A stretch of 64,000 nucleotides of DNA, from NCBI GenBank assembly GCA_963575645.1, contig OY754466.1, forward strand, positions 4,194,001 to 4,258,000, in the 5' to 3' direction. This DNA is from Xanthostigma xanthostigma. Taxonomy: Eukaryota > Arthropoda > Insecta > Raphidioptera > Raphidiidae. Made by a program: the position numbers and the translations under genes. The notes beneath the pieces were generated by a model, which was not told the DNA's origin, did not search any database, and saw nothing but the letters and a program-made list of their open reading frames with translations. Positions 17,844-52,348 of this stretch are shown here, one piece after another (positions within the stretch are counted from its first letter, which is position 1; every line of letters begins with the position of its first letter).

Positions 17844-20821
17844 TGAATTTATTATACAGTATCGGGACGCCACTGCTATAAATTCCTATGCAGATATTGG
17901 TCTATGTGTTTGTGTTATTACAACATTTTATATTTTGTAATAAATATTCAATTAGAAATATCTGATATTTTTAAACAATTTTAATGATAATTGATATTTA
18001 AAAGACGTTAAACATAGTAGGATGGTCATCGATTGGCTGTGTTGATGGTACGATTTAAACAAAATTACGTATAACTCAACTAAATTGCGTAGCAGTCCCA
18101 GTTTCATAATGTTAAACAATTTCTATATGTCACTCAATAAAGTCGTGATCAAAAAATTGTTAATTAGCTTAAAAACTCGAATGGCAATGCCAAAACTATG
18201 CTGACAATATTATTATGTATTTGTTAACACAGGTATTGAGACTTTATTATGGTAGGTAACTTAAGGAGGTTGAGCCGTTTTACGAAGATAATGAAAAAAA
18301 TCTGAAATAAAGTTTTTTTAATTGATTTTTTTATGACAAAATTTTCTGTAAAAAATCTAAAATCATTAGGAGATTTATAAAGTTAAAAATTAAAAAAAAC
18401 TTTTACATGTAGTCTTATGGAAAATATGTCAACCTAGCATGCAAACGGTACATTTTAATTTTTTGCAAATAACCAAATAATGTCAACAGTTCCAAAAACT
18501 AACTATGTAAAGCATAGATGTCTTACGCATATTTTAATATTTTTTCCAATTTAATTAGGAGACTTTTAATCAATAAAAAAAAATTATTAAACCTTAGCAC
18601 TTTTCGATTATGGACTTTTATTCTTGACAATTTTAACTAAATTTTTAACTTTTTAATGATTTAATTTTAATTTTTATTACTTCTAATTTCTTTTTTTAAT
18701 TATATACTGCAAAAAATATGTAAAATACAGATATTTACATAAATTTATTATATCTAACCTAACTTTGTACAAAAAATTCAAAAGTTAGTTCATTAAGTAA
18801 AATACTGAAATAATATAAAAAATTAATATAAAAAATTAATATAAAAAAAATGTTTATTTATGCCTTTATGACAATAATTTATTGGTATCATCGACTTATA
18901 ACCTTTTGTGAAAATTTATTATGGAAAAGTTCCCATTCAGAATTCGACTTACTTTTGATTGGGACTGTAACGCATCAATCTCCTTAAATTTGATTTTTGA
19001 CTCTTAATTTATTGCAATATTATTGCCAATCCAACATCTGCCCCAAATTAAATACACACCCTCCAGTAAGTTAATCCGTACCCGAAAACTAGTGTTTTCA
19101 TAAAATTTGAAAGTCTGGTCCTGTCTGGACAGTTTCATAAAAATTTTTGCATCACATTTTAATCTTTACCACGTATTGAAATTTGAGCTTTGAATAAAAT
19201 TTGTTTTCATATTTTTCAAAACCACTTCTAAAATGGTCCAACCCCTAAGTTCCACCATTCGACCGACGTCAATACTGTATATGTTTTTTTTCACAATTTT
19301 ATTGACGACTGTTTTTAACTGAATTTAAGCCATGATAGGAATATCTATGGTCACAAAACAAAATCGTTTATATTAAATTATCTCAATATCTCAGTCCCAA
19401 TATTTTTTTTCAAGGTTAGATACGGCACTGCCCAAACCTGACTTCCAATGTCAAAATTCAACTTGTCACTTTCTATATCACACAATTTTTGACAAATAAG
19501 CGTTCCATTTTACCAACGGAAATATTTCGACATAAGTGATTTTTTCTTGTGAACACTATTTTTAAATCATCGCTTAATATAGATAAGCACATTATAGCAT
19601 TTAACATAACCTTTATTTTACTTGAAAGCCGGTTACGCGTAAAAATATGAGTAACTTTTAGAATTTGTACAAATTAATGTTAATAAGACACAAACAAGCA
19701 ATAAAATAAAAATGTTTATTCACTAATCGATGAGAAAGAAATAATGGTTTTGTCTGCCGTCTATAAAAAAACATTTATTTGTTCACACAAAAGTTAATAA
19801 TTACAGAGGCAATAACAGTTCATTATGGTGCACAAAATTTTGATCCAAAACTAACTTGTGCCAAAATCAGTTGACTGTCCAGACACCAGAATATTTTGCT
19901 AAAAAAATATTATTTTCTTGTACTAATTTCGGAAGATGCATAAATCAATCTGAAACAAAATTTCCAATATTTTTTTCTCACGACTTCGTCGTGGAAACTT
20001 GCCACGAATATGTAAAATCCTTTTCAACCGTTACGTTTATAAAATCCTTTATCAAATTTTAAATTGAAAGTAGATTTTTTTATAAAACAAAGAGCATCCT
20101 AAACTTGCCTTTTATCCCATCTTAAACATTTTAAAATCCAATCAAAGTCGAAAGCATCGTACAGTTTTAAAGAAAATTACTAGTTTTTTTCGACACTCAC
20201 TGCGAATAAAAAAAATGTCAATAAGCTCAATGAAATTAAATGTTCTAAAGTCAATGATGCTTTTTGTGCGATATCAATAGATTGAAGAATTTTTAAGTGC
20301 CGTAAATTTTTATACAGATTGAGTCAAAATTTCATAAATTCTACTTCTTCGGATGTTTAAATGTTTATACACGTTCTTAGACAGTCGGGGCTATAGAAAT
20401 CGAAATTAAAACGGTACAAGCCTCAACCGGATCTAAAAGGAAAGTTAATTTGGACACAGCATAGTCCAAAACCGAATAAATAAATTTTAATTTATTAGTT
20501 AGAAGCAGATTTTATATTACCTACTTTGAAGAAAATAATAATAATATAAAATTTAGGTACGTATGGAAAAGAAAAGGCGTGTTTACATTTACGTAATGGT
20601 TTAAGGTAATGTTACGTCATGTTAATATCTACAAATTGTATTCCCTAGCAGACTTCAAACGTCTTGACGGATTTTGAAAAATGAGGTGTCCATAAAATCG
20701 TCATAGTCTCACGAGAACACTCAATATGGTGGACACTAGACGTCGTCAAAACCCAAAAGTCAACAGCGGTTTTATGGATTTTATTAAACGAGGTTTAACG
20801 TCTCTGTTTCAACTATTTAAA
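17844..20821. other. Long AT-rich gene-free stretch
   Basis: About 3 kb with no coding family, RNA gene or clear element recognised; short AT microsatellite near 18815-18850. Confidence 0.5.
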
Positions 20822-20834
20822 CAAATAACAATGA

Positions 20835-21109
20835 TTTAAATCTTTGATTAACGTCAGAATGCAACTCTTCAAATAAATAAAATTCTCGACCAATTTTTTT
20901 CTGACTATATTTTGACAAAAGAATAATAAAATTGTAAATCAATATTTCACTAGATGACGTTTCGATCCGGATTTGGATTATCTTCAGAAATAATCTAAAA
21001 AATATCCGGATCGAAACGTCATCTAGTGAAATATTGATTTATAATTTTATTATTCTTTTGCCAATATAATATAGTCTGAAAAAAAAATTGGTCGATAATT
21101 TTATTTATT
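20835..21109. mobile_element. Penelope-like foldback insertion, 13-bp TSD, hammerhead core
   Basis: Flanked by CAAATAACAATGA at 20822-20834 and 21110-21122. Ends carry ATTTTATTTATT/ATCGACCAATTTTT blocks in inverted order plus an ATCTTTGATTAACGTC block. Contains the ribozyme-like core at 20956-20987 on - and a partial inverted copy. Confidence 0.75.
20956..20987 (-). ncRNA. Hammerhead-ribozyme-like core (a)
   Basis: On -: CTGAAGA, a stem II region (ATCC...GGAT), CGAAAC and GTC as a possible cleavage triplet, with ACGT as a palindromic minimal stem III. One extra base lies between CTGAAGA and stem II, compared with the canonical core. Confidence 0.55.
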
Positions 21110-21328
21110 CAAATAACAATGACTTGAGCTACTAGACAAATAATCAGTTATTTAATAAATTATCAGTACATAGTTTTGTATTAAATTAAAAATACCAGAA
21201 GTACACAAATAGTGGAGAGAAAGTTCAATAAACACAAAAGTACGCGTCACATTGACAGTATTGCGTCGAGTGGCCCCGCTGAGGCGTAGCACTAGGGCTT
21301 TCATTCGGGGAGGTTTTCTACAGAACTA

Positions 21329-21743
21329 CAGTGTAAAACTGTAAACTCTATATAGTGACACTCAAGGGACTGTGCACTTTGTGGCGTTATTGAGAGTTGT
21401 CGTTAAACGGAGAGAAGAAATAATCCATTAATATTTTTTTACTATAATAAGTATTTACTCATAATATCTGACCAACAATCATTCATTCACTAATTACAAC
21501 AATGAAAGATACTCCCAACAAACAAAAGAACGAATTTCTTAGAATCTTCGGTATACGCATGATGCCGACAACAAAGCAACAAAATAACAAACTAGTACTA
21601 TTTATTGCTTAATGATGACGTATTGTTGTCGTTATTTAGAGTGTATCATTGTATTAGCAACAAGGTAAACCAACTAGAGTTAAGTAATTTCGACGTTTTA
21701 AGGAGTTTGTCGTTATATCGAGTGATGAATGGCGTTTACACTG
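21329..21743. mobile_element. pogo/Tigger-like MITE, TA target
   Basis: CAGTGTAAA...TTTACACTG tips flanked by TA; internal sequence shared with 15325-15740. Non-coding. Confidence 0.7.
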
Positions 21744-22174
21744 TATTAATAAACACTTATGGTATCCTTTCGGTGTCCGCCCGCCTGTCACAGGTGATTT
21801 TCTCTGAAATTAGTTGACGTAAAAATTTGAAATTTGGCACAGACATAGAGTGTGGTGGCCCAATAACAGACGTGAAGTATAAAAAGTTGAATTTCGGTTT
21901 GGAGGGTTAATTTAAGGGGGTTAATTGGGAGTTGAAAACAATTTTATTTAAGGGCCTCTTATAAGGTGTGAATTGAAATGTAATTGAAGCACGAATAGAA
22001 CAATGTGTTTTTTTTTCTTTCTTACATTTTTAGGGGTGTATGAAAGGGATACATTTTTTAAAACCAAACATAATAAAGCCGGTGTTAGCAAATACACCAT
22101 ATTTTCGGCAAGGTTTGGCACTGCGACCTGTTTTTTTTTTTTTTTTGATGTAATGAAAAAAAGTTATAGTCAAT

Positions 22175-22469
22175 AGTATAAAGTAATGTTGATCCAATAG
22201 AATATTAAGATGAAGGAAGGTTTTGGTTGAGGATCATAAAATAAGCTTTACCAGTGTTTCGCTAGTGGCCAACGTTTCGAAAAATTTATTTTCATCTTCA
22301 GGGCCTATGAACATGTATATATGTATATAATTTAGAACATATTGTATCACAATTTTATGTAAAAAGAAACCATGCTCAAGATGAAAATACATTTTTCGAA
22401 ACGTTGGCCACTAGCGAAACACTGGTAAAGCTTATTTTATGATCCTCAACCAAAACCTTCCTTCATCTT
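22175..22469. mobile_element. Penelope-like foldback insertion 2, 12-bp TSD
   Basis: GTTATAGTCAAT flanks it at 22163-22174 and 22470-22481. Arms 22207-22312 and 22378-22469 are inverted copies, each with a ribozyme-like core; the right one is mutated (CTCAAGA). Confidence 0.75.
22267..22305 (-). ncRNA. Hammerhead-ribozyme-like core (b), best stem I
   Basis: On -: GGCC, CTGAAGA, T, GAAAA-loop-TTTTC stem II, GAAAC, GTT, GGCC. The two GGCC blocks can pair as stem I exactly at the expected junction, and U before the second GGCC would be the cleavage position. ACGT offers a self-complementary stem III for a dimer. Confidence 0.6.
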
Positions 22470-22481
22470 GTTATAGTCAAT

Positions 22482-23640
22482 GGTAAGCTTTTTCGATTCC
22501 CGTCTTTATGTTTATTCGGGGCAACTTTGGACTGAATCCCAGAGTAAAATTGAAAATGCTCTTTAAAATATCGGATACCCAATCGGGCACGGCACTGGCA
22601 ACAACATAATAAGGCATTTTTTTAAATATTAAATTACTTTTTATAGTTGGTACGCCTACCTATGCAATAATATTGTTGGCATAATTCTGCATACCTAGGT
22701 GTAATAAAGTGTTAAAATATGCAGAAAGGCCCATCATCAGACTATTGTAGAATGTATTTTTTTTAATATTAGCATACTTCAATTGTCTCAATAAAACAAA
22801 TGAGCGTAACGAATTCAAATTATTTTAAACGTTGCATATTTGAATTGAGTTGGGTAATTAGGGTTACCGTTGAATTTTCGCAAAATATCAGACAGTTTTT
22901 ACGAAAAAGTCTGAATTCGAGGATGAACGCGTCTGCTCTCGAAAAATAAAAATTTATAGGCTTTAGTTACAACATTTTTTTATCTAATAATTGGCGCTGT
23001 ATTAATTATATAACACACTTAATTTAGCTCTGGGAACTTGTGCACGAAGCCTATACTAGCGCCGCTAGTGGGTAATAGAGAATTATTGAACTCGTTTTTT
23101 AATGGAAATCGCGACGTGTCAAAAACTTTAGTTGGCCATGATGTATAAAAAAAAACTGATGTTAATTTGTTTACACTGATAGCGGAACGTCAAATTAGGG
23201 CGCCAATGGTCTTTATTTTACTTAAATCACCATCATCGCAAAAGCCCGGAACACAACAAGCATTTCCAGATCGCTTAGTTTTCCTATGTTTTCTTTGTTA
23301 TTAAAAAACTTCATAAAATTATAACTATTTCCACTTTTAATAAACATTGCTCACTGACATACGGAAAATTTGAGCTTGAAGTTTTCCCTAGTGCTCACCA
23401 CAAATGCTCGCATCGAAAAATTTGTAACACCTCCTCCCTGCACATAGCCCATAGATTCAACAAACTATGCTTTTCCTAAATCGCACTCTATTCATCCATC
23501 CAGAGCAAATGAACCACTGAGATGATCTCATCCATCCAGAGCAGATGAACCATTTATTTACTTTTGTAATTTCCTATAAAGAGATTTATCTCAATTACAG
23601 TATTCTATAAAAAATATATAAATATAAATAATATTTATAT
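22482..23640. other. Intergenic, nothing recognised
   Basis: AT-rich; short direct duplication around 23495-23550 (TCCATCCAGAGCA). No gene. Confidence 0.5.
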
Positions 23641-23644
23641 TATA

Positions 23645-23890
23645 CTAGTGGCCCGGTTCAGTTAATTCGCACGAATTTATAGATTGTCACCGTTTTTTCG
23701 TCGACTTACGTTGCGACATTGGTTTCCACGAAAAGCAATTTTACTTTAACGCGATAATATATATGCCTATGGCCGTCCTGAAGGTCTATTCTAAATATTA
23801 TTGAAAACAATTTCGAAATCAGATGAGTAGTTTCGGAGATTACCCTCTGCATATACACAAACTCACAAAATTCGCACTATCTCTATATTA
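23645..23890 (-). mobile_element. Helitron family B, 5'-truncated copy
   Basis: Reverse copy ending GGGCCACTAG|T at 23645 with a GTGCGAATTAACTGAACCGG-type 3' part. The 5' tip TCTATACTAAT is lost or mutated. Confidence 0.7.
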
Positions 23891-23912
23891 CAACAAATTA
23901 GTTACTAGGTAA

Positions 23913-24201
23913 TAAATAAAATTATCGACCAATTTTGCAGACAATATATTAACAAAAAATATCAATAATACATTAAACGATTAACGTTTCGATCCGGATT
24001 TGGATCTTCTTCAGAACGGATCTAAAAATATAAAAAAAATAATTAATAATAATTAGTTTCTATTTATTTTTAATGTAATTCGTGAAAGATTTTTTTGATA
24101 TATAAATATTGAAAAAATAATAAACTATATTGTCTGAAAAATTGGTCGATAATTTTATTTATTGAAGAGTTCTAATCAGACGTTAATCAAAGATTTGAAT
24201 A
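23913..24201. mobile_element. Penelope-like insertion 3, 14-bp TSD, hammerhead core
   Basis: TAGTTACTAGGTAA at 23899-23912 and 24202-24215. AATAAATAAAATTATCGACC at the left, its complement followed by GAAGAGTTCTAATCAGACGT at the right. Core at 23983-24014 on -. Confidence 0.8.
23983..24014 (-). ncRNA. Hammerhead-ribozyme-like core (c)
   Basis: On -: CTGAAGA, A, GATCC-loop-GGATC stem II with five perfect pairs, GAAACGTT. Stem I support is weak (about 3 bp). Confidence 0.55.
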
Positions 24202-24215
24202 TAGTTACTAGGTAA

Positions 24216-24593
24216 ACTTATAATAATATAGTGTTCACGATTTTGGTTTATAGTATAACAGAATAGTTACGATGGAAATTCTGCTGTTGCAAAGACATCA
24301 GATATCTATGGCAATTATTAAACGTCAAACGATATGACAATTTAAATTTTTTAAATATTATACAATTTATTTACAATAATTTTAATATTTCTTAAACATT
24401 TTTGAACAGAAATTATGTACATGGTGAGTTTCTACAAACAAAAATTATAAAAAAATAGCGACTAATTAATATTTACTGGTTTATTTAAACAAGTCAGTTG
24501 AAGACATTGTTAATTTTTTCTAAATTTAAGAGTGAATCATAATTAGACAAGACAAACAAAATACTTTTGAAAGGATGTAAAATTTACTAAAGC
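24216..24593. other. Upstream region of the TOG gene
   Basis: AT-rich; no convincing core promoter motif could be chosen. Confidence 0.4.
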
Positions 24594-27500
24594 ATGTCTT
24601 CGACTAGAAGTTCCGAAACGAGTTTCTCGGACAGTCTAGTAACTAACATAAACCGCGTAGCGCAAATAAAACAACCGGTATCTAAACGAAGAGATAACTA
24701 TTTTATCGATCGCTTTTTGTCTGACTCTTATCACCAGCTACAAATCATAAGTGAAGATATAGAAAGTAGCAATGATTCAATTCGCAATTCTCGGACTTTC
24801 AACAGCCAAATCGATGGAACTACTGAATACGAAGAAACCGATACAGCAACATCAAGTAGACAGTGTAATAAAACGAAATCAAAAATCCCCAAAGTTTTTA
24901 GAGACCAGAAAACGATCCAAACACCGTACAGTTCGAGCGATTCTTTGGACAGTATAGAAACTAAAATTCGCACGACAACGAAGAAAAAATTCCTGAGAGC
25001 TAGAAGTTCTGCTTTGAATTCCACATCTGACGATAGACACTTTTCAAGGTCAAATATAAACAAAAGCGGTAATTCTCATGTTTCTTTAAAAGACAATTTC
25101 TTGGACAGTAAACAAAACGATGTGAAACTACGTTCAAGCACAAACGAACCTCGCAAATTTCGTCAGTTGTTTTTGGAACAAACTTCTCCCGTTCGAGATA
25201 TTGTAGCAGATCAAAAAAGAACAATTGATCGGCATAGGACAGTTCAAGGTTCTGGAAGAATTACGGATAAAAAGTCGACTAGCGTGTACGATTCTAATAA
25301 ATCGCATGTTAAAGATTTGATGAAATCTTGTGTTTCGTTGTCGCGTGATTACAGTACATCTCCTAGAAGAAAAATGAATGAGGTCCATCATACGAGGGTA
25401 TCGATGCTACGCGGAGGCTTTACGCAAGAAAACGGTACTGATTCGAAGTTGAGTCATCACAAGAACGCTAGCAAACACAGTACGTTGTTGTCACCAACGA
25501 GGGCTAGTCATCAGAGAGATGTTACGCGACAAATGGATTGTATAAACAGGTTTGGATGTTTGATTTTTTTCTTATGAATAGGTACAATTATCACACAAAA
25601 ATGAGGTTGAAGCTAAAGCGGCCTACACATCTTGATACAAGCTGCGATGCAGGCATCGACTCTAAGTTTCATGAAACTTGCATCAGTTGCATAAACGCCT
25701 ACTTAAATCGAAACCTATTGCGATGCCTGAATCGACTCCATGTTCATGCAACACAAGAACACTAGGTTAAGTTATTTTCTAGGTACCTAGTGCTTGATGA
25801 ATAAAATAAGGTACGTTTTGCCAACACCAGTTTTATTATCACTCTTTAAACTCCATAAAAGGAAACCAAAAAGGAAATGGTCAAAAAGATGGTTAATAGA
25901 AAAAAAACGTTATTTAAATGCAAATTTATTGGAAGAGCTAAAAGTACATTTGTATTCCAAAGTCACGTATGCACATGATAAATGTTTATGAACTCTTCCC
26001 AAAATACACGATCACTTTCCATCATGGAATTTACACACACAAACATTAAAGTAACCTCTAAAATGGCGCGGGAAAATAAATTAATATCGTCTTGGCATCG
26101 ACGCAATTCTACACACGCTGAAACTTGCATCGGCATCACCGACTCGGCGTCGTGGCTCGCCGACCACAATGGTATTCCAGACTCAGCATCGCTGCAAGCA
26201 GCAACTGATGCCAAATACGTGATTCAGTACTACACACACTGCTACTTGCATCATGAAACATAAGAGTCCATGCCTGCATCGCAGATTGTATCAAGGTGTG
26301 TAGGTCGATTAACAGTCGGAGCTCTGCTGCAAGTAAACCTGAATCGATGGTGATTCCCAGAGGTAGACATTTTTGTTGTTGTTGATAATCTAGCGCTGAT
26401 AAAACAGGGGCCCTCGGAAGCTGAGTGCTTCCTGGAGCCCTTAAGCACGAAAGAGAGCGTTTCTGCCACCGAGTGCTCCTTGACCATTCCTGTCGCCATC
26501 TTCCTAACTATAAGTTTTTGCCTTGCGTAGCGATAATTTGTAAATATATCTCTGTCGATTTACACATTTTAAAAATGCGCTAAATTAAAAATAAACAGTT
26601 TTTGAAAATAAAATTCCTAATTTCCCGTGTTGGCATTTAGGTACCTGTCGCCAACTAGGAAAAGGATCCAAGAGAGTCAGCAGTCGGAAACCATGTACCG
26701 GCTGTCTGCTTTGAACGAGTTGATTCCTTTTAAGGAGAATGGAGATCACACAGATACGCGTTTAACATACCGCGAGAGGCTGCATGGCTCAAAAGTCAGG
26801 AGTTCGTCCAAATCTCCAGTAAGATCGCCAATTACAATAAATAATACTCCAAATAAGAATGATGACATCTCGATGCCAGATAGAAAGGTTTTATTTCTTT
26901 GGAGCAAATTATTGTAACATGATGTTTTAGGTGGATTGGTGCATATTTTAGCATTTTATAAGGTGTGCTTGGTATCGTGTTCCAGTTTAAAAAGTGTTGA
27001 CACTTTTGACACTATTACGTTTGTTATATACAAGTGCCACCACGGATTATACACCTATAGTAAAAACAAATCTTCGTGTATACTAAATAAATTAATTACG
27101 TAATGATTATTTTGTTGTAATACAGACTTTATCATTTATCTAATTAATATAAAATGAGCAGTATCTATACACTTCCTACTTAAAAATATTCAGCCAGTTC
27201 GACAGCGAGGAGACCATTCCAAAAATACTAACAAAATAAATAAAAATTAAGTCTTTGTTCTCGCGTTTTTTAATTTTCACTTTATTCATAAAACTATATC
27301 CCCGGAATATTTGCGGAATGTCAAATTTTAATTTTCTATTACCAACCGTTTAGAAGTGACCAGTGGTGTTGTGCTAATTTTTTTTTACCGGAACGCTCCC
27401 AAATTTGACGACGGAGGGGGGGGGGTGAAAAGAGGTAAAAAGCTGTAACTGAAATACATTAATATTATTTTTTTCATTGTTTGGAATTTTTCTATTGTTA

Positions 27501-30500
27501 CAAATTTTTTCAATTGTTATGTCGATTTGAGAAAAAAAAACAAATTACGTTAATAAAATCCTAAAGTAATATTTACATTATTTTTTTCATTGTTTGGAAT
27601 TTTTAGGCGCGAATAGCGTAAGCTAAAGCGCCTATATGTACTCGCTTTGTCTGTACGTCTGTGAATCTGTGAATCTGTGAATCTGTACGTCCCACTTTTT
27701 TGTGTCACGCGTACAGCCCAAACGCCTTAACCGATTTTAAAAAACTTTTTTTTGATCGATTCGTCTCCGGGTAACTTAGATCCTAACGTCGCCCGATTTT
27801 TGAATTTTGGCCCCAGAGGGGAGAAATTTAGGAAAAACGAAGTTTTTTGCTTATAGCTCGCTCATTTTAAATCGGAACGGCTCGAAACCTGTCTTAAACG
27901 AAAGAGGAGAAAATTTTACATAAGTTTCGTACAACAGAAAATGCCCAAACAGTTTTTTTATACACATTTATATAGAAATAAATTCAATTTGATATAACCG
28001 ATGGCAAACATCTTTCGGTTATCTCTCTCTGTTGCACGGCTTAACATGGCAATTTAAAAATTGCGTATGTTCTGTCTTCAAATAAAATTGGTCGATAATA
28101 TTATTTATTACAATAATGAAATTAAAAGATAGCATTTGTTCAAAAACGGATGCCGTTTCGAATATTTGTGAAATGCAACGCCTTCTGAGTTAATAATTTG
28201 AATAACTAATTATTAGAACATAGGTAATACTTTGACAGATGCAAACGTCACTTTTGACATTTCTTACCATTCTGACACCACGGATGATCGGATTGAAACC
28301 AAATTTTGGGAGGATGTTTGATATGCAAATATGAAGTGGCCTATTGTTTTTGGGGAACATCGGCGCATGCGTAAAAGAATATATCTCTTATAATGTTGTT
28401 TTATATAAAAATAATATAGTTTGTAAAACGGTTTACTCTTCTATCTAATTTTACTAGAAATTTTTGTAAATTTTTTGGGGAAAATCGGCGCATGCGCAAG
28501 AGATATATGCCGTCGTTGTTTTTTTTTTTTTTTTTTTAATATAGCGGTGTACTTTTAATAATAGTTTTTTATTCTATTTTACAAGAAAGTTTTGTAAAAT
28601 GTTTTTTTTTGAGGGAAAGTCGGCGCATGCGCAGAAGAGGTATAAGTTATAAAGTTGTTTGTATATAAGAATGGTATACTTTTCATAACGGTTTTTTATT
28701 CGATCTATTTTTACAAGAGTTTTGTATAATTTTTGGGAAAAATCGGCGCATGCGCAAAAGAGATACATGCCATAGTGATTTTTATAGGGGAATTATAAAA
28801 CGATCGAATAAAAAAAAAACTTGGTGACTGATGATGAGAGACTGTTTTAATAACTTGAGATATTAAAATAATAGTTGGGTGACTAAATTAATAAGTGAGC
28901 GACTGAATTACTAAGTGACTGACTAGAATGCCTTCGGTAATTTTGAAGCAGATATCTTCAACCGATTGAGATGAAAATTTGTATACACGTTTAGTTTGGA
29001 TGACAATGCATGGTTAGCTGTGTGACGTCACTCTAAATCCAATATGGCGGACTTCTAAATTGGCGGACTAAATTTATTATGCTTTCCTACAATATGGGTA
29101 TCAAATGAAAGGGCTTGCTGAGAATAACTCGAAAAATAAAGTGACGTCACTCTAAATCCAATATGGCGGACTTCTAAAGATGGCGGACTAAGTTTATTAT
29201 GCTTTCCTACAATATGGGTATCAAATGAAAGGGCTTGCTGAGAATAACTCGAAAAATAAAGTGACGTCACTCTAAAACCAATATGGCGGACTTCCAAAGA
29301 TGGCGGACTAAGTTTTTTATGCTTTCCTACAATATGGGTATCAAATGAAAGGGCTTGCTGAGAATAACTCGAAAAATAAAGTGACGTCATTCTAAAACCA
29401 ATATGGCGGACTTCTAAAGATGGTGGACTAAGTTTTTTATGCTTTCCTACAATATGGGTATCAAATGAAAGGGCTTGCTGAGAATAACTCGAAAAATAAA
29501 GTGACGTCATTCTAAAACCAATATGGCGGACTTCTAAAGATGGCGGACTAAGTTTTTTATGCTTTCCTACAATATGGGTATCAAATGAAAGGGCTTGCTG
29601 AGAATAACTCGAAAAATAAAGTGACGTCACTCTAAATCCAATATGGCGGACTTCTAAAAATGGCGGACTAATTTTATTATGCTTTCCTACAATATGGGTA
29701 TCAAATGAAAGGGCTTGCTGAGAATAACTCGAAGAATAAAGTGACGTCACTCTAAATCCAATATGGCTGGCTTCTAAAGATGGCGGACTAATTTTATTGT
29801 GCTTTCCTACAATATGGGTATAAATGAAAGGCTTGCTGAGAATAACTCGGAAAATAAAGTGACGTCAGTCTAAATCCAATATGGCGGACTTCTAAAGATG
29901 GCGCACTGGTTTTTACAAGAAAGTTATGAATTTTTTTTTCTAAACTCATATTTTCAGAAATATTTTGAAAAAAAAATCTGTTGTTCTTTTGTTCTGAAGA
30001 TGTTAGTTAGGTAGTTCTTTGTTTCATTTTTGCATGACATAATAACATATTACATACAGAACCATGAAATTATTAAATTTATTTTTTTCCTTTCTGTGTT
30101 TCATTATTTTCAACTGTTATTTTTTTCTTAAATTAAGTAAATTAAGTTATATTATTAAGCTCCAAGTGTCGTTAAATATATACACCGATTTTCAAACAAA
30201 ACACCGGGGAATATGCTGTAAAATTTCGCGCCTTGTAATTCTTGAATTACTTGGGCATATACTCCCACTGGTTCTATTTGTTGGCACATTGTTACAAATT
30301 TTTTCAATTGTTATGTCGATTTGAGAAAAAAAAACAAATTACGTTAATAAAATCCTAAAGTAAGATTTACATTATTTTTTTCATTGTTTGGAATTCTCGT
30401 TATCAGAAATCATCTTTAGTTCCGGAACGCGTTCCTGTCCAAAAAGGAAGTACCGGAACGACGTTCCGGACCGTTCCGACTCGACAACACCACTGGAAAT

Positions 30501-33500
30501 GACATGTCTGTGACAAACAGACGGACAGACGGATGCACAACGGATTTTCTAGTTTTTACCATTTTGGTACCAAACCTAAATAAATACGATAACAAACAAG
30601 TATACAACTAGATTTTAATTTTTTTATAGGAAAATGACTTCGGATCCATTTGCGTCACCGATTCTACAACAACCTTAAATGCAGATAGTAAACATCCAGT
30701 TGCGAATGCTCTTGAAAAGTTGAAAAACAATGAGTGGTATGTCAGTTGTTTTTTAATAATCATTCCACAGTCAAAAATGACACCTTTACAGACGCGACAA
30801 TGTTTCTTAAGACAGACGCGCCATTCTAAACCGGGTATTGATAAGATAACTGTTGACTCTAAACGTCCGACAACTGAGGCTATTGGCATCTTTCGTAGAG
30901 AACGGCGACATTCATCAATCAACTTTTTTGGAAACATTAATAATACCTATTCAAATTTTGATTTTTGGTATAACGGAACTGAAACGTTATATGCAAAGCC
31001 TCCTTCGAATTCAAAACCCCTAAAAATGGTTTTAATACCGGATAATAATACATTTTTCTTAGGGACGTGGCACTTCGTGGTCTAGCCGACATAGTTGAAC
31101 TGTCACATTTACTGGAATACGAGAAGATTTTGCCCCACATGACCACCGTCTATCAGAGACTGATCACGTTGCTACGCAGTCCCAGGTCCTACGTTTGCAG
31201 GACCACCTGTCAAATTTCAGCTCTACTTTTTGGAACCATGAAATATACTAGAAGACCGGTAAATGTATTTTGTAATTCTTCGAAAACAATCGTAAGATTT
31301 CGTAAGGTCATCAAGATCTCTTTGAATTTTATTAAGACATCAACTCCGAACATCATTAATACTGGGGATCAAAGTCAATAGTGTATCCATATTTTGACCG
31401 ATCTAATGTCGGTCAACGTCGGACGACATCGGAAGAACCAAGATTATTGTGTCAGTGTCTCACATTGGAAACAGAAGTCCGATTTCCTTTCCAATGTAGA
31501 CACCCTGGCGTTTGCTTTTCTTCCAATATGTCTTAGAACCAGCGTAAAAATTCTACTGTTTTGTATCATGGAGTCGCTTGTAGGTCTGTCAACAGCACAC
31601 TATTCGCTCAAATACACAACTAGATGTATCACGAACGCGCGATTGGTGAAACAAACTCATCGATTGCTACATCCAGGCCATGCTGTTTCCAAATCGCGAA
31701 TCCAACGAGACATTTCTGAGTAACATAGTAAAATCGTGATGTAGTTGTGACGCAGTTGCGCGTTTCCGATACAAAACTTAGCATGTTGTGCGCTAGGAGT
31801 AGAATATGTTCAATTTCAGCAAGAGGAAAATATGAAAAAATATGTTTTTTAAAGATAAACTAATAATTTCCTTGTTCAGGAATTCGATGAAATCGTAGAC
31901 ACGTTGTTGGCGAAAACAGCAGACGCCAGTAAGTTTATCAGAGAGGATTCCAGTGCCGCCCTCGATTCAATGGTAACTCACATTGCGCCTTTCCATTCGG
32001 TCAGGGCATTGTGTGCCAAAGGACCCGTGTAAGTTTCTAGTCTAGTCTCACTGTAAGTCTAATACAGTGGTACCTCGGACATACGAGTTTAATTCGTTCC
32101 GCAACCTTGCTCGTATCTTGAATTACTCGTATCTCGAAGCAAATTTCCCCATACAAAACAATTGAACTACCATTAATCCGTTCCAACCCCCAAAATGTCA
32201 CCCCAGTTTGAATAATAAAAACGTATTTATAAATGACAAATATTTATTGCACAAAAACAAAAAAGAGAATGTAAAGAAATAAATTAGATATCCTCACTGG
32301 TCTTTGCCTTTTTCGCTACATTTTTCTTGCTTTCACCTGTAGGCCGTTTAGAAAAAAACATGTCCAAGGAGGTTTGTTTCTTCCTCCCTCTCAGAATGTT
32401 CCGGAAATGAGTTAGGCAAGTGTCATTAAACCTGCTAAATCGAACTCGTATCTTGAATTTCGCTCGTAACTCAAAGCAAAAAATCATTCGCTCGCCGGCT
32501 CGTATCTCGAAAAACTCGTATGTTGGGGCACTCGTATGTCGAGGTACCACTGTAATTCATAGAGTTGTGACCTAATAATGATCTAAAATTGCGAGAGTAT
32601 AGTAAGTCATTATACAGTTATGAATTGGGCTATAGATTATAGACCCTAAAACGCAGTTTCTACTAAAACCCAAATAAGTAATTTTGAGTGACCAGTAACT
32701 GAATCGATGAAACAATGGAAGCTCGATTATTTGTTTTTGCGTTAACGGTTTTTAAATTTACAGACATAAGAACGCGCTGGTTCGAATCTCTGCATCGCGT
32801 CTTTTGGTGTGTATCATCGCCATCATGGGAAATGACAGCATATTCAGTACGAGCGCCAACGAGATGGTCAAGAAGAAATTAATCACCAATACTTGCACAT
32901 TTCTGACGGATTCGAACACAGAAGCACGGTTTGTTGGCTAATAATTTAATTACACTGGATCTTGGAATGCTATAGTCCATTCTGAATCATTGTTTTTGAC
33001 AGTGGTATCGTAGAGTAAGTACCACTGAACGCCACCCATAACCTCGAATGTCATTTTCAATAAATAAAATTATCGACCAATTTTTCAGACAATATATTAA
33101 CAAAACATATAATAAATACATTAACGTTTCGATCCGGATTTTTTATATTTTTTAGATCCGTTCTGAAGAAAATCCAAATCCGGATCGAAACGTTAATGTA
33201 TTTATTATATTTTTTGTTAATATATTGTCTGAAAAATTGGTCGATAATTTTATTTATTGAAGAGTTCTAATCAGACGTTAATCAAAGATTTGGAATGTCA
33301 TTTATTAAGATCAGATTGGTAACAATTACAAGCTGCGCAAGGGACTCGCGGAGCTGCGGCAAACACGAAGTTATAAAAGGAGAGCTATCAAACATATTTT
33401 GGGTAGATATTTGGGGCAGCGTGAAAATTTGTGTAATACTTTTGTAATTTCTGAACACAAAATCGAAGTGTAGTGGGGCCTGGCCAAGCTGTGAATTTTT

Positions 33501-34632
33501 AACATTGATGAATTTTTATTTGCAAAGAAAGTTTTCGAGACATTTTGACTTCAACCTACCCGTAGCGTATAACAAACAGTTTTGTAACCGCCGGGCAGAC
33601 AGTTAGACCTCACTAAATGATCTGGCTTACTTATTTTTTAAGTTATTAAATACTAAATTGGAAGGTATTAAAATTTCAAACTGACCTCAAGGACTTTTTT
33701 TGCAAATAAAATTTCCGCAAAGTTAAACATTCACAGCTTGGCTAGACTCGACTACCCTTCAGCCAGGTCTTCGAATTTGTGTTTAGACTAGTGATGTGCC
33801 GGATCGTTAAAAATGTACATCCGCGGATACGGATCTGAATACGGATTTTTGGTTTCAAGACCGCGGATGCGGATACGGATCTTAACTTTCTTAGAGTACG
33901 CGGCGGTAAATATTGCACATCGACCTTTGGAAAGAGACTATCTGTTATGGGAAAAAGTTATTGACCTTTTTAAGAGTTAACTGTCATAACAGATTGTCTC
34001 TTTCCAAAGATCGATGTGCAATATCTCATTATACAGATAGTTGATTTGGTACCTTTCAGTTATGTACTATTGTATGGTACTCACTACTATAAATGTTTGC
34101 AATATAAAGGTGCCAAATACGATTTAAAAAAATAAAAAATAATCTGAATGGAATTTAACAGGTTTTCATTATTACCTAATCACCTATATATTATATAAAA
34201 TTTCATCTATGAATTGAAAATTAATAAGGTAAAAGATCCGCCAAAAACTAACGGATACGGATCTTTCTTCTTCCTCGGATATCCGCGGATACGAATATCC
34301 GGCACATCACTAGTTTAGACATTACAAAAAGAAGTGTTACACAAATTTTCACACTGCTTCAAATACATATCTAAAAATGTTTGATAGCTTTTTGGACTGT
34401 AACTAAAGCAACCATAATAATTTCTTCTATCACCATGAACACTATCAGCTCTATAATTTCCCTCCGTGTACATAGTCTATAGTTTGATTTATGTTTCAGA
34501 AAAAATGGAGAGAAAATGTATAAATTGCTGTCGATGCATCCAGACTTCAACACAAATTTTAAAAATATCGTAGATAAAAATACAATGGCGCGATTAAAAA
34601 ACATCTTAAAGACGTTGAACAGAACAAAATGA
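24594..34632 (+). CDS. TOGARAM/crescerin-like TOG-domain protein, 7 exons
   Basis: Exons 24594-25549, 26641-26887, 30630-30736, 31063-31258, 31880-32028, 32764-32928, 34500-34632; all junctions are GT-AG and the phases close to 650 aa plus TGA. The ATG is preceded by an in-frame TAA six bases upstream. Residues 1 to about 420 are Ser/Arg/Lys-rich and look disordered. From about residue 425 (ALEKLKNNEWDVALRGLADI) to about 640 the protein matches the C-terminal TOG (HEAT-repeat) domain of TOGARAM1/2 (crescerin, CHE-12), which binds tubulin and supports ciliary microtubules. Family members usually have about four TOG domains and are much longer; only one is visible here, so this is either a short insect form or an upstream part lies elsewhere. 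A CLASP-type TOG is the alternative. Introns 1, 3, 5 and 6 hold transposons. The exon structure is seen directly; function is inferred from the family. Confidence 0.85.
25617..26309. mobile_element. PIF/Harbinger-derived element in TOG intron 1
   Basis: Inverted ends (CCTACACAYCTTGATACAA plus CGATGCAGGCAT) of about 45 bp flanked by TAA (25614-25616 and 26310-26312), the Harbinger target. Inside, 25794-25991 on + reads RKWSKRWLIEKKRYLNANLL, like the N-terminal region of Harbinger transposase. It is broken after about 65 codons. Confidence 0.7.
28360..28770. repeat. Degenerate tandem repeat, 115-135 bp, with GCGCATGCGC
   Basis: Four units, each with CGGCGCATGCG (near 28371, 28486, 28621, 28744). 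The last three include GCGCATGCGC, the palindromic core bound by NRF1/erect-wing factors. Confidence 0.7.
29022..29905. repeat. 120-bp tandem array, seven units plus a partial
   Basis: Units start GTGACGTCA at 29022, 29141, 29261, 29381, 29501, 29621, 29741 and 29859. Each holds TGACGTCA, CCAATATGGCGGAC and AGATGGCGGAC. Divergence among units is low, so the array is young. The long frame on - (29055-29750) exists only because 120 is a multiple of three. Confidence 0.95.
32065..32552. mobile_element. Tigger (pogo superfamily) remnant in TOG intron 5
   Basis: CAGTGGTACCTCG...CGAGGTACCACTG tips with TA on both sides (32063-32064, 32553-32554). On -, 32284-32430 encodes a Tigger transposase tail (FRNILRGRKKQTSLD, then KRPTGESKKN). 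The catalytic part is deleted. Confidence 0.85.
33057..33292. mobile_element. Penelope-like insertion 4, 11-bp TSD, TOG intron 6
   Basis: GAATGTCATTT at 33046-33056 and 33293-33303. Internal inverted arms with the ATCGACCAATTTTTC block; right terminus AGACGTTAATCAAAGATTT. Core at 33163-33194 on +. Confidence 0.8.
33163..33194 (+). ncRNA. Hammerhead-ribozyme-like core (d)
   Basis: CTGAAGA, ATCC-loop-GGAT stem II, CGAAACGTT. Upstream CGTT and downstream AATG can form a 4-bp stem I with one wobble. Confidence 0.5.
33789..34312. mobile_element. hAT-type MITE family D, complete, TOG intron 6
   Basis: TAGTGATGTGCCGGAT...ATCCGGCACATCACTA ends with the exact 8-bp duplication GTTTAGAC (33781-33788, 34313-34320). 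An inner palindrome is built on GGAAAGAGACTATCTGTTAT. Other copies at 41930-42334 and about 62710-63200. Confidence 0.9.
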
Positions 34633-36423: not shown

Positions 36424-39400
36424 TTAAGGATCCTCTGGCAGAGATTCGTTGTCTGCTTTGTTGACAGTAATTACGTCCCTATATTGTATCAATACCAGTT
36501 CGTAAGTAACTATTGTACTGGCCACCTGCGAAAATAGAAAACCATTTAGAACTATTGGGATTTGACATGTGGCTGAAGTTTAGATCAATTGTAATGTCGA
36601 ATCCGCCATTTTTTTAACCGACGAAAAACAAAAACGGAGGAGGTTCTCAAGTCGACGCGTATATTTTTTTTTTTTTTTTTTTATTTATGTATGACCACGC
36701 ATAACTTTTTACAGAGTAGTCCGATTTTGATAATTATTTTTTTGTTTGAAAGGGTATACCCCGAAGTTGGTCCCATATAAATTTGGTAAAAAAATTCCAA
36801 CCCTAAGGGTAGGAAAACAGGGGATGATTGATTGTTCACTCACTGATTGTAATGTATGACCACACATAACTTTTTACAGAGTACTTCAAGTAAATTTACT
36901 TGAAGAGTTCTATTCAGACGTTAATCAAAGATTTGATTTTTACAGAGTAGTCCAATTTTGATAATTCTTTTTTTATTGGAAAGGGTATACCTCGAGGTTG
37001 GTCTCATATAAATTTGGAAAAAAATTCCTACCCTAAGGGTGGGAAAATAGGGGTGATTTATTGTTCACTCACAGATTTTCATGCTGAGTTGTGTATTACA
37101 ATTATAAATTATATAGCCACAAAAAATTATAAAATAAAAACTTTTTAACAAAAAAATTAAACCGCCGAAAAACTGAAAAGCAAAAAATAATAAATCTTTT
37201 TATTTAACTAAGTTCTATCTAAGTAGTTGAAAGTATGTGACAGTCTAGTATATCTAAGTAATTTTGAGTCGGCGTCAAACAATCAATGAACAAAGATCAC
37301 TAAAAGAAATAACCAAATCAAATTAACAAAAATCTCCAGCGATAAACATTAACATTCCAAACATGCGCTCTCCACACGACCATTCGCAAAGACGTGTGGC
37401 CTCAGTGTGTGCCCGTTCGGGTTGCTCTGTCGCTGACATTAACTTCGTGAACGCTCAGAGATTTCCGGCAAAGGATTGTTGACGCCGACTCAAAATTACT
37501 TAGATATACTAGACTGTCACATACTTTCAACTACTTAGTTAAACTTAGTTAAATAAAAAGATTTATTATTTTTTGCTTTTCAGTTTTTCGGCGGTTTAAT
37601 TTTTTTGTTAAAAAGTTTTTTCATATATCTAGTCATACTATCAGCACGTAAAACGTAATGTATTTATGGTTTAAAATTCTGTCACCAGATGTCGTATCGT
37701 TTCATATCAAATTCCGATAAATGTTAGAAAGTTAGAGAAACGGGAATTTCTGAACGATGTTTATAATAGACGGTCCAGAAACTATGTTCCTTGTCGGAGA
37801 CGTTTCCCATCTTTTCCTGGAACGAACGATATTATTTCGAACCAATCACGAGACCAGTCGTCAACAACAATCACTGTGTTACGAACCAAAGAGAGTTTAG
37901 GAAAAATTTCAATTCGCTCTTTTCTTTTAAAGCGGCTCATAGACACTCAATATTATTGCGCAATATAATTGACCGTATGTAAACGAGATTGAAAAGTTGA
38001 TTGTGTGATTTTCAAAATCATGAAAATATATTGCACAAACGGGGAAATATTGTGCCGTCTGTTGTCAAGATTGCGCAATATCCCGTCAGTTGATCTCAAG
38101 TAGCGGTCGTTTCAACAAGTCGTCTCAACTACGCCTCATCATGAGTGACAAGAAAGCCGAAAGACAATTTATTGTTGTATTTATCGTGGTCTTCCGGCTC
38201 TGTGGGATGTGAAGTTCAAAGACTATAGTAATCGTGACAACATGATGACTGAAGTTCTGGTGGGGACTGTTTGCACAATGTGGCTGTACAGTCTGTGCTC
38301 GCAATTGAGCAATATATTGCACAACCTTCAATATCGCCTCCATACAGTACAATTTTTTGCACATACCAAAATATTGTACAGTAATATTGACCGTCTAGGG
38401 GCCGCCGTCAGAATATTGTGCAACCCACATTGCACAATAATATTGAGCGTCTATGGGCCGCATAAGACAAAGATACCAGCACAATGGTGGACATGATTCC
38501 GTGAACTAGTTCCGCTCAATAAAAGAAACGCCTCGTGCTCATTCCATCTTTGGAACTGCTTTTCGTAAGTCTAGCTTCATAGAGGAGCTGTGTGTTAACT
38601 TACTGTAAGAATGATTCCACGATGAACGCGAAAGAAGTTAAGTCCTGTCAAGACAGCCATATCGATTTTAATTTGATTTATCAGTCGTTTTACCTGTTCA
38701 ACAAAACACAAAAATTGAGAGCAACAGGAAAAGTAAAAAAGGGGGGACCCTTCTTTCGAAATTGGAATTTTTTTGAAAAATAAGTTCGCTCTGTTTCGTT
38801 TAATATTATGCATACTTATAGAAAAAGTCATTCTGAATCGAGGTAAGAGTACGATAACTTGCTATGCAAAATATCCACTGGAAATTCACAATTATTGTTT
38901 TATATAACATATAACAGCGTTATTGGTCGTTTTAAGTGCGGAAAATTAATTTTTATAAATTAATTTAAAAAAATTAAATATGGTATAGTAAGTTGATTTA
39001 GAGTATATTATTTACTATAGCGATCGCTATCTTGTCTTATATAGTGATAAGAAAAGAGAAAGTTATATATACCTGTATCTATGATAAACAAAGATAGAAA
39101 TATCAATTGGTTGGAATGAAATACAATTGAACGTTCAGGGCAGAGTCGTATTTGGAAATTTTAATTTATAAAACGAATTTTAAATTTAAAACTCACATTT
39201 TCATGAAGATTGAAAACCACCGCTTTTTTTGATAGAGGGGTATGCGAATTGTCTCGCAGTGAAACGGGAAGGGGCAAATGTGGAGTTTTTAAAAAAACAA
39301 TTCCGGGGTGAACGATAAACGGGTATGCGAATTGTAATTCTGGGGTGAACGATAAAGGGGTATGCGAATTGTCTCGCAGTGAAACGGGAAGGGGCAAATG

Positions 39401-51861: not shown

Positions 51862-52132
51862 TATAAGATTTTGTTGTTTTGATGTGAAGGGGGTTGAAAA
51901 TCCGCCATTGATGATATCTGAATGTTATAGCTCCATGGTTAAGCAATGTGACAGAGGAACATCTGTTATCTAGTTTCCATTGAGCTATAGATATGGAGTG
52001 CTAGTTTGGGCTGCGCCTGCGCGTGTTCAATAACGACAAGACGAGCCAGAAAGAGACAAATATATCGTGTTTATCGCTTTATCTTTCCTGAAGGCTTGTA
52101 GGCACTAGCACCCCATATCTACAGCTCAATGT

Positions 52133-52194
52133 AAATAAAATTGTCGACCAATATTTACTTGAAGAGTTCTATTCAGACGTTAATCAAAGATTTG
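52133..52194. mobile_element. 62-bp mini-insertion of the Penelope-like family, 13-bp TSD
   Basis: TACAGCTCAATGT at 52120-52132 and 52195-52207. The body is AAATAAAATTGTCGACCAAT followed by the GAAGAGTTCTATTCAGACGT block. It interrupts a small palindrome (51978 onward). Confidence 0.85.
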
Positions 52195-52348
52195 TACAGC
52201 TCAATGTCTTGTTTCTCAATTATTTTTGTAAAATTTGATGGATAGGGTGAATTATGTGCTTCTGCCGGTAAGAATATTCACTTGATTGACGCTATCATTA
52301 TTCAATATATAAAAGTTACAGTCTTGCTAGTTATTTCGACGCACCCTA

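What the first reader, a model, noticed from the sequence alone, without database searches (positions are those of the whole stretch)
20822..33303. Insertion family with hammerhead-like ribozyme cores and 11-14 bp target duplications
Insertions at 20835, 22175, 23913 and 33057 each have their own exact target duplication (13, 12, 14 and 11 bp), so they moved independently. Each keeps CTGAAGA, a pairing stem II and CGAAACGT, followed by T or C. In copies at 22271 and 23983 the stem II sequences differ (GAAAA/TTTTC versus GATCC/GGATC) but still pair, i.e. covariation. Minimal-stem-III hammerheads that act as dimers are known from Penelope-like elements; variable-length target duplications also fit that class. 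The inference is that these are Penelope-derived or retrozyme-like elements.
Basis: partly seen in the sequence, partly recalled or inferred. Interest (0 to 1): 0.85.

Follow-up and report, generated by a model that had tools for sequence, protein, structure and literature searches.

The report
Penelope retroelement fragments with hammerhead-like ribozymes
These are short, head-to-head copies of the end of a Penelope-like retrotransposon, each carrying a minimal hammerhead-type ribozyme motif; the kind is known, but their lopsided ends bear on how such elements insert.

Summary
In detail: four insertions with exact target duplications (13, 12, 14, 11 bp) carry CTGAAGA-stem II-CGAAACGT. The genome (623 Mb) has 15,154 such matches against 41 for the reversed pattern. 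Stem II pairs in 265 of 336 cells over 84 distinct strings (shuffle maximum 205), one nucleotide later than canonical. Stem I covaries, and H17 is G in 0 of 95 contexts. No Rfam hammerhead model matches.

The Penelope reading is confirmed for the family of three copies: uninterrupted 822-aa RT/GIY-YIG ORFs are followed, about 180 nt after the stop, by the same family's ribozyme, arm and tail. The fourth copy's family is linked only by a 37-aa match.

The elements are head-to-head dimers. Exactly one end is tailed in 31 of 31 family-A/B dimers with duplications of 9 bp or more (44 of 47 overall) and in 6 of 6 of four other families. Two starts on one RNA explain this better than plain self-priming; self-priming with an early stop remains possible. 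Truncations do not cluster at the ribozyme cut. New member of a known kind.

The parts
20822..21122 (-). Family-A inverted dimer (insert 20835-21109) with 13-bp target duplication; tailed end on the left
20956..20987 (-). Hammerhead-like core CTGAAGA-T-AATCC..GGATC-GAAACGTC (closing pair of stem II broken)
22163..22481 (-). Family-B inverted dimer (insert 22175-22469) with 12-bp target duplication; tailed end on the left
22271..22301 (-). Hammerhead-like core CTGAAGA-T-GAAAA..TTTTC-GAAACGTT; folds with stem I GGCC/GGCC
22375..22404 (+). Second, mutated core (CTCAAGATG...) in the other arm of the same dimer
23899..24215 (-). Family-A inverted dimer (insert about 23913-24201) with 14-bp target duplication; tailed end on the right
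23983..24014 (-). Hammerhead-like core CTGAAGA-A-GATCC..GGATC-GAAACGTT
33046..33303 (+). Family-A inverted dimer (insert 33057-33292) with 11-bp target duplication; tailed end on the right
33163..33194 (+). Hammerhead-like core CTGAAGA-A-AATCC..GGATC-GAAACGTT (closing pair of stem II broken)
33259..33292 (+). Tail: about 34 nt beyond the untailed end; in L091 the matching tail ends 26 nt before the ATG of the ORF
36871..36949 (+). Extra, very short family-A dimer (insert 36884-36935), 13-bp duplication TTTTTACAGAGTA, tail on the right, no ribozyme
   Evidence: read by eye
52120..52207 (+). Extra, very short family-A dimer (insert 52133-52194), 13-bp duplication TACAGCTCAATGT, tail on the right, no ribozyme
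   Evidence: read by eye
28074..28116 (+). Fragment matching the arm end of family A; no tail or duplication recognised

Best explanation
The insertions are non-autonomous, 5'-truncated copies of the 3' end (pseudo-LTR) of Penelope-like elements (PLEs). Each consists of two copies joined head to head, each pointing outward. The pseudo-LTR carries a minimal type-I hammerhead motif with one extra nucleotide between CUGANGA and stem II; its stem III is only ACGU, so cleavage would need two RNAs. Proposed insertion route (inferred, about 40%): the element's GIY-YIG enzyme cuts both target strands with a stagger of about 9-17 nt; each target 3' end primes reverse transcription on the same RNA, one at the tail site and one at the second site about 30-50 nt further in; the two cDNAs are then joined. 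One RNA with one copy of each start site gives exactly one tailed end. Shown: PLE linkage (family A), covariation, dimer geometry, the one-tail pattern, and that the two arms of a dimer are more alike than arms of different dimers. Inferred: ribozyme catalysis and the two-start route. The stated confidence is for the identity (PLE pseudo-LTR dimers with a hammerhead-type motif), not for the route.
For: Family-A ribozyme, arm and tail lie about 180 nt after the stop of 822-aa open frames in L089 and L091; a 685-aa frame in L090 is followed by the family-A ribozyme too. The L089 frame aligns with a second PLE of the genome (31% identity over 562 columns, E 4e-66) that hits RVT_1 and GIY-YIG. Of the 30 GIY-YIG loci, 22 have a paired motif downstream on the same strand, among them 16 of the 18 near-identical copies L021-L038 (some loci overlap and are counted apart). 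Stem II: 265 of 336, 85 of 88 in picked representatives. Stem I: 30 of 36, 0 of 5000 shuffles; H17 = T74 C19 A2 G0. Geometry: 17 of 17 opposite-strand neighbours within 2 kb are '-+', and 17 of 17 (three pairs are in both lists). One tail: 31 of 31 with duplications of 9 bp or more, 44 of 47 in all; 6 of 6 with duplications in four other families. Arms within a dimer are closer than between dimers (A, 18 dimers, 0.083 vs 0.123; B, 20 dimers, 0.023 vs 0.040; 0 of 5000 permutations each). Two adjacent RT start sites that bound the tail, and cutting and extension of both target strands, are reported in vitro for an Anolis PLE (PMC11167929, main-text section read).
Against: No Rfam hammerhead hit at any threshold tried. 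The 822-aa frames have no significant Pfam hit; their assignment rests on alignment to the other PLE and on motifs recognised from memory. Family B has only a 37-aa protein link. 5' ends of copies do not cluster at the predicted cut: 2 of 26 unselected dimers lie within 4 nt, so there is no sign of ribozyme processing. Coinciding truncation points are in excess in the pair-selected set (9 of 15 with spacer up to 14, re-paired mean 3.2) but not in the unselected set (4 of 26, mean 3.0). At B position 16, 3 dimers are A/C and 1 is C/C, which fits separate templates better. Tail status rests on BLAST ends with a cut-off set after a first look: L050 was undecided and counts as tailed. No mismatched-flank control was run for the six dimers, and some of their duplications are AT-rich. 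The Anolis paper saw no difference in start site between the strands, so it does not predict strict one-tailedness.
Confidence: 0.88

Rival explanations
1. Self-priming (snap-back): a single cDNA started at the tail folds back, copies itself toward its own start and stops at the second site, so the copied half lacks the tail.
For: Arms of a dimer are alike. Excess of small, hairpin-sized spacers in the pair-selected dimers. Self-priming was proposed for PLE palindromes in PMC3846280 (passages seen; there on an antisense template).
Against: Plain snap-back copies the tail to both ends or neither, but 31 of 31 plus 6 of 6 dimers with target duplications have exactly one. The stop would have to fall within the same few nucleotides in each family. 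The one case with no tail at either end (L079) has palindromic flanks, as full snap-back or insertion into a palindrome would give.
Confidence: 0.3
2. The motif is conserved for something other than self-cleavage, for example protein binding on the template RNA, and is not an active ribozyme in this genome.
For: An extra nucleotide next to stem II, almost no stem III, no Rfam hammerhead hit. No cluster of truncations at the cut. In the Anolis PLE, ribozyme mutants still insert in vitro (PMC11167929).
Against: Core, H17 not G and covariation of both stems are what catalysis demands. The Anolis PLE hammerhead cleaves when protein is present. Insertions of one or two nucleotides between CUGAnGA and the stems are known in hammerhead alignments (PMC10085705, passages).
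Confidence: 0.25
3. Retrozyme: non-autonomous LTR or non-LTR element with hammerheads that spreads through circular RNA.
For: Short, non-coding, very many copies, hammerhead core.
Against: Coding PLE copies carry the same ends. Duplications of 9-17 bp, not the 4 bp described for plant retrozymes (PMC7761336 passages). Head-to-head rather than tandem order.
Confidence: 0.03
4. Foldback or MITE-type DNA transposon with terminal inverted repeats.
For: Inverted repeats bounded by target duplications.
Against: Ends are unequal in all 31 dimers with duplications of 9 bp or more, duplications vary in length, arms vary from about 11 nt (36884, by eye) to 264 nt (L094), and the same sequence lies behind an RT/GIY-YIG frame.
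Confidence: 0.02

Closest known systems
Penelope-like elements of the Penelope/Poseidon type (D. virilis Penelope, Anolis PAc, Adineta Pen2)
   Same: RT + GIY-YIG ORF of about 820 aa, pseudo-LTRs in inverted order, tail on one of the inverted pseudo-LTRs, short variable target duplications, hammerhead motif in the pseudo-LTR (PMC11167929 main text; PMC3846280 passages).
   Different: In PAc the ORF begins at stem II. In family A the ribozyme seems to end about 150 nt before the ATG (pieced together from L089 and L091; no fetched copy shows both in one 5' pseudo-LTR). The window copies are pseudo-LTR dimers without ORF.
Minimal type-I hammerheads of PLEs (Cervera and de la Pena 2014; Lunse et al. 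2017; known here only from other papers, as neither was held)
   Same: Thousands of dispersed copies, helix III nearly absent, pseudo-LTR location (PMC7761336 passages).
   Different: One nucleotide (A or T) between CUGANGA and stem II in the 22 stem representatives examined; whether the published set shows it could not be checked.
Retrozymes
   Same: Hammerhead in a short, non-coding mobile sequence.
   Different: See the retrozyme rival: coding relatives, longer duplications, head-to-head order.

Membership tests
Penelope-like element | RT and GIY-YIG ORF in the same element | tested here: met
   Family A: L089, L091. Family B: weak, 37 aa.
Penelope-like element | pseudo-LTRs in inverted, head-to-head order | tested here: met
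Penelope-like element | 30-50-nt tail at one end | tested here: met
Penelope-like element | short variable target duplications | tested here: met
   exact repeats of 9-17 bp in 31 of 47; control 27 of 2162
Penelope-like element | RT groups with PLE/telomerase RTs in a tree | not tested
   only pairwise alignment and Pfam
Hammerhead ribozyme | CUGANGA and GAAA core with pairing stem II | tested here: met
   stem II starts one nucleotide later than the canonical register (register +0: 0 of 84 strings fully paired)
Hammerhead ribozyme | stem I pairs across the cut site | tested here: met
   30 of 36 for 9 representatives, three of which are variants of family A
Hammerhead ribozyme | H17 is not G | tested here: met
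   0 of 95 contexts, many of them related copies
Hammerhead ribozyme | stem III | tested here: inconclusive
   only ACGT in 95 of 106 contexts; could pair between two RNAs
Hammerhead ribozyme | match to an Rfam hammerhead model | tested here: not met
Hammerhead ribozyme | self-cleavage | not testable with these tools
   needs transcripts
Retrozyme | no coding form of the same element; 4-bp duplications (as described for plants) | tested here: not met
   description from PMC7761336 passages

The most novel reading that the evidence does not exclude
Each Penelope insertion is made by two reverse transcriptases primed from the two cut target strands on one and the same RNA, one at each of two adjacent start sites. 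This forces exactly one tail per inserted dimer. The ribozyme is not needed to define the ends.
Probability: 0.4. Interest if true: 0.65.

Novelty: new member of a known kind. Interest (0 to 1): 0.42.

Why it matters
How PLEs make inverted pseudo-LTRs is open; published proposals include self-priming (PMC3846280, passages) and an incomplete outline from in vitro work (PMC11167929, main text). A genome with thousands of small dimers gives clean counts: one tail per dimer in 37 of 37 with target duplications across six families, and arms that share a source. That sets a sharp prediction for a cell-based insertion assay. The many stem families also outline the core of these hammerhead variants, which the Rfam scans here missed.

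Tried and rejected
Rfam: 0 matches at gathering over the window. At E up to 10 over 20500-34000 there were 16 matches, none over its gathering score and none a hammerhead; the best, miRNA-precursor families at E down to 9.5e-8, lie on the palindromes of the elements. Short stretches gave 0, 1 and 2 chance-like matches. Truncation at the ribozyme cut: no cluster. Two different templates per dimer: not supported overall. A hairpin shared by the tails: none; families B and C each fold somewhat better than shuffles (10 and 20 of 200 as good), the other four do not. Family-A cores in the window fold with a competing hairpin. A first truncation analysis aligned each dimer with itself and was discarded. 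Pfam on the 822-aa frames: nothing significant at E up to 10; PDB sequences: none.

Selection and rows set aside: one search used 22 stem representatives picked by eye; one search repeats the test on all 100 listed rows plus 48 of the 100 listed rows (the distinct strings), and its rows are only the close neighbours, picked by eye. Searches left out L062, L097 and dimers with equal ends; searches left out L062, L097 and L079. One search kept only contexts with four stem-II pairs, so stem II there is by construction; stem I and H17 were not selected. Of the 20 loci, 18 were taken because two ribozymes lie close together in family A or B; the other two, L108 and L109, likewise in families C and F. 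One search uses numbers typed, averaged or rounded where the two arms differ.
Full report
The observation. The cores lie on the minus strand at 20956-20987, 22271-22301 and 23983-24014 and on the plus strand at 33163-33194. Each insertion is an inverted repeat, with arms of 65, 100, 38 and 86 nt in the ungapped repeat search. Three copies belong to one family (A: stem II GATCC/GGATC), the fourth to another (B: GAAAA/TTTTC). In two family-A copies the closing pair of stem II has decayed. Two further family-A insertions, too short to keep the ribozyme, lie at 36884-36935 and 52133-52194, each with a 13-bp duplication and one tail (read by eye; they are not in the counts below).

More than chance. 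The window lies in a 623-Mb genome that can be searched. The pattern CTGAAGA-N(8-30)-CGAAACG occurs 7580 and 7574 times, its reversal 20 and 21 times; CTGATGA-N(8-24)-CGAAACG gives 1072 and 1113 against 18 and 16. In the 100 listed rows, the first four stem-II pairs fit completely in 73 rows when one nucleotide is left out after CTGANGA, and in 0 rows in the canonical register; over 84 distinct strings, 265 of 336 cells pair, against a maximum of 205 in 20,000 shuffles. With 22 representatives picked by eye it is 85 of 88. Stem I was tested on 9 representatives, three of them variants of family A: 30 of 36 pairs, 0 of 5000 shuffles as high; the base after GAAACGT is T 74, C 19, A 2, G 0 in 95 contexts, many of them related. 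The family-B copy in the window folds into both stems; the family-A copies form stem II or a competing hairpin. No Rfam hammerhead model matches. Insertions of one or two nucleotides next to CUGAnGA are known in hammerhead alignments (PMC10085705, passages), so the extra nucleotide does not by itself exclude the class.

What they are. A GIY-YIG search listed 37 places among 150 scored candidates of 521; 30 became loci, and 22 of the 30 have a paired motif downstream on the same strand (some loci overlap). One PLE with a long RT/GIY-YIG ORF (L041, 657 aa in that copy; RVT_1 and GIY-YIG) carries its own stem version 250 nt after the frame's end. For family A, two of the eight loci (L005, L006) gave a GIY-YIG C-terminus upstream of the ribozyme; a search with that stretch gave 150 matches, the scored part of 3147 candidates, with open frames up to 822 aa. 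In L089 and L091 the 822-aa frame is followed by the family-A ribozyme, arm and tail, in L090 a 685-aa frame likewise, and in L091 arm+tail also stands 26 nt before the ATG. The L089 and L091 proteins are a sister subfamily, 89% and 87% identical to the query. The L089 frame aligns with L041 over 562 columns at 31%, although Pfam gives nothing significant. Family B has only a 37-aa match to a GIY-YIG C-terminus inside a dimer with 252-nt arms that also holds a LINE-like frame (L112; 'LINE-like' by eye).

Anatomy of insertion. Opposite-strand neighbours within 2 kb are minus then plus in 17 of 17 cases (one of them, L062, spans separate elements) and in 17 of 17; three pairs are in both lists. 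In one search's listing, counted by eye, 15 are of that order and one is not, and that one involves a chance-like string. I scanned 72 loci for family-A/B ends and got 47 end pairs from 44 loci: 44 of 47 have exactly one tailed end; the exceptions are in L062 (nested), L097 (ambiguous) and L079 (no tail, palindromic flanks). Of those with an exact duplication of 9 bp or more, 31 of 31 have one tail, on the left in 18 and on the right in 13; mismatched flanks give such repeats in 27 of 2162. In eight further dimers of other families, the six with duplications (L048, L064, L072, L108, L109, L113) also have one tail, of 29-53 nt; L059 and L040 had no recognised duplication; no mismatched control was run there and some duplications are AT-rich.

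How it works. In the Anolis PLE, reverse transcription starts at two adjacent internal sites that bound the tail, and both target strands are cut and extended, with no difference in start site between the strands (PMC11167929, main text). PMC3846280 says that the tail is optionally present on one of the inverted pLTRs and favours self-priming on an antisense template (passages). Here, strict one-tailedness speaks against plain self-priming. The two arms of a dimer resemble each other more than arms of different dimers (0 of 5000 permutations in both families), so both seem to come from one source. One RNA, with one copy of each start site, primed from both target strands, explains both facts. 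The third expectation, coinciding truncation points, is met in the pair-selected set but not in the unselected one, and allele pairs at B position 16 do not fit well. Self-priming with an early stop remains a serious rival. [quoted passage not shown]

Known or new. Minimal type-I hammerheads in PLE pseudo-LTRs, in thousands of copies, are published (PMC7761336 passages; the primary papers were not held). The finding is therefore a new member of a known kind. I saw no paper that counts one tail per dimer or draws the one-RNA inference; the searches were made, in open-licence papers only, and most hits were seen only as listings.

Changes on re-checking: the distance from tail to ATG is 26 nt, not 28; the odds of the two-start route are put at 0.40 in both places (0.45 stood in one draft field). 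No other odds were changed.

Noticed in passing
window 28941-29960: Tandem array with a 120-bp period, seven register copies found, the central ones 92-98% alike.
   Followed up: no
window 28342-28786: Four copies of a motif around ATCGGCGCATGCG spaced 123-135 bp.
   Followed up: no
window 52349-52933 and 56431-56925 (minus strand); 53805-54419 and 58750-59277 (minus strand): Duplicated zinc-finger-type gene pieces and a similar pair of N-terminal-type pieces, apparently a gene duplication (ORFs; names by eye).
   Followed up: no
window 33465-33539 and 33686-33760: Another inverted repeat, 75-nt arms, 81% complementary, just beside the insertion at 33057.
   Followed up: no
L079 300-800: A family-B dimer without tail at either end whose flanks are inverted copies of each other for about 50 nt beyond the arms, and by eye further: full snap-back product or insertion into a palindrome.
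   Followed up: partly
L044 about 4538 and L035/L036 about 2052/988: Coding PLE copies also joined head to head, in one case at the same codon on both sides, in the other at different ones.
   Followed up: partly
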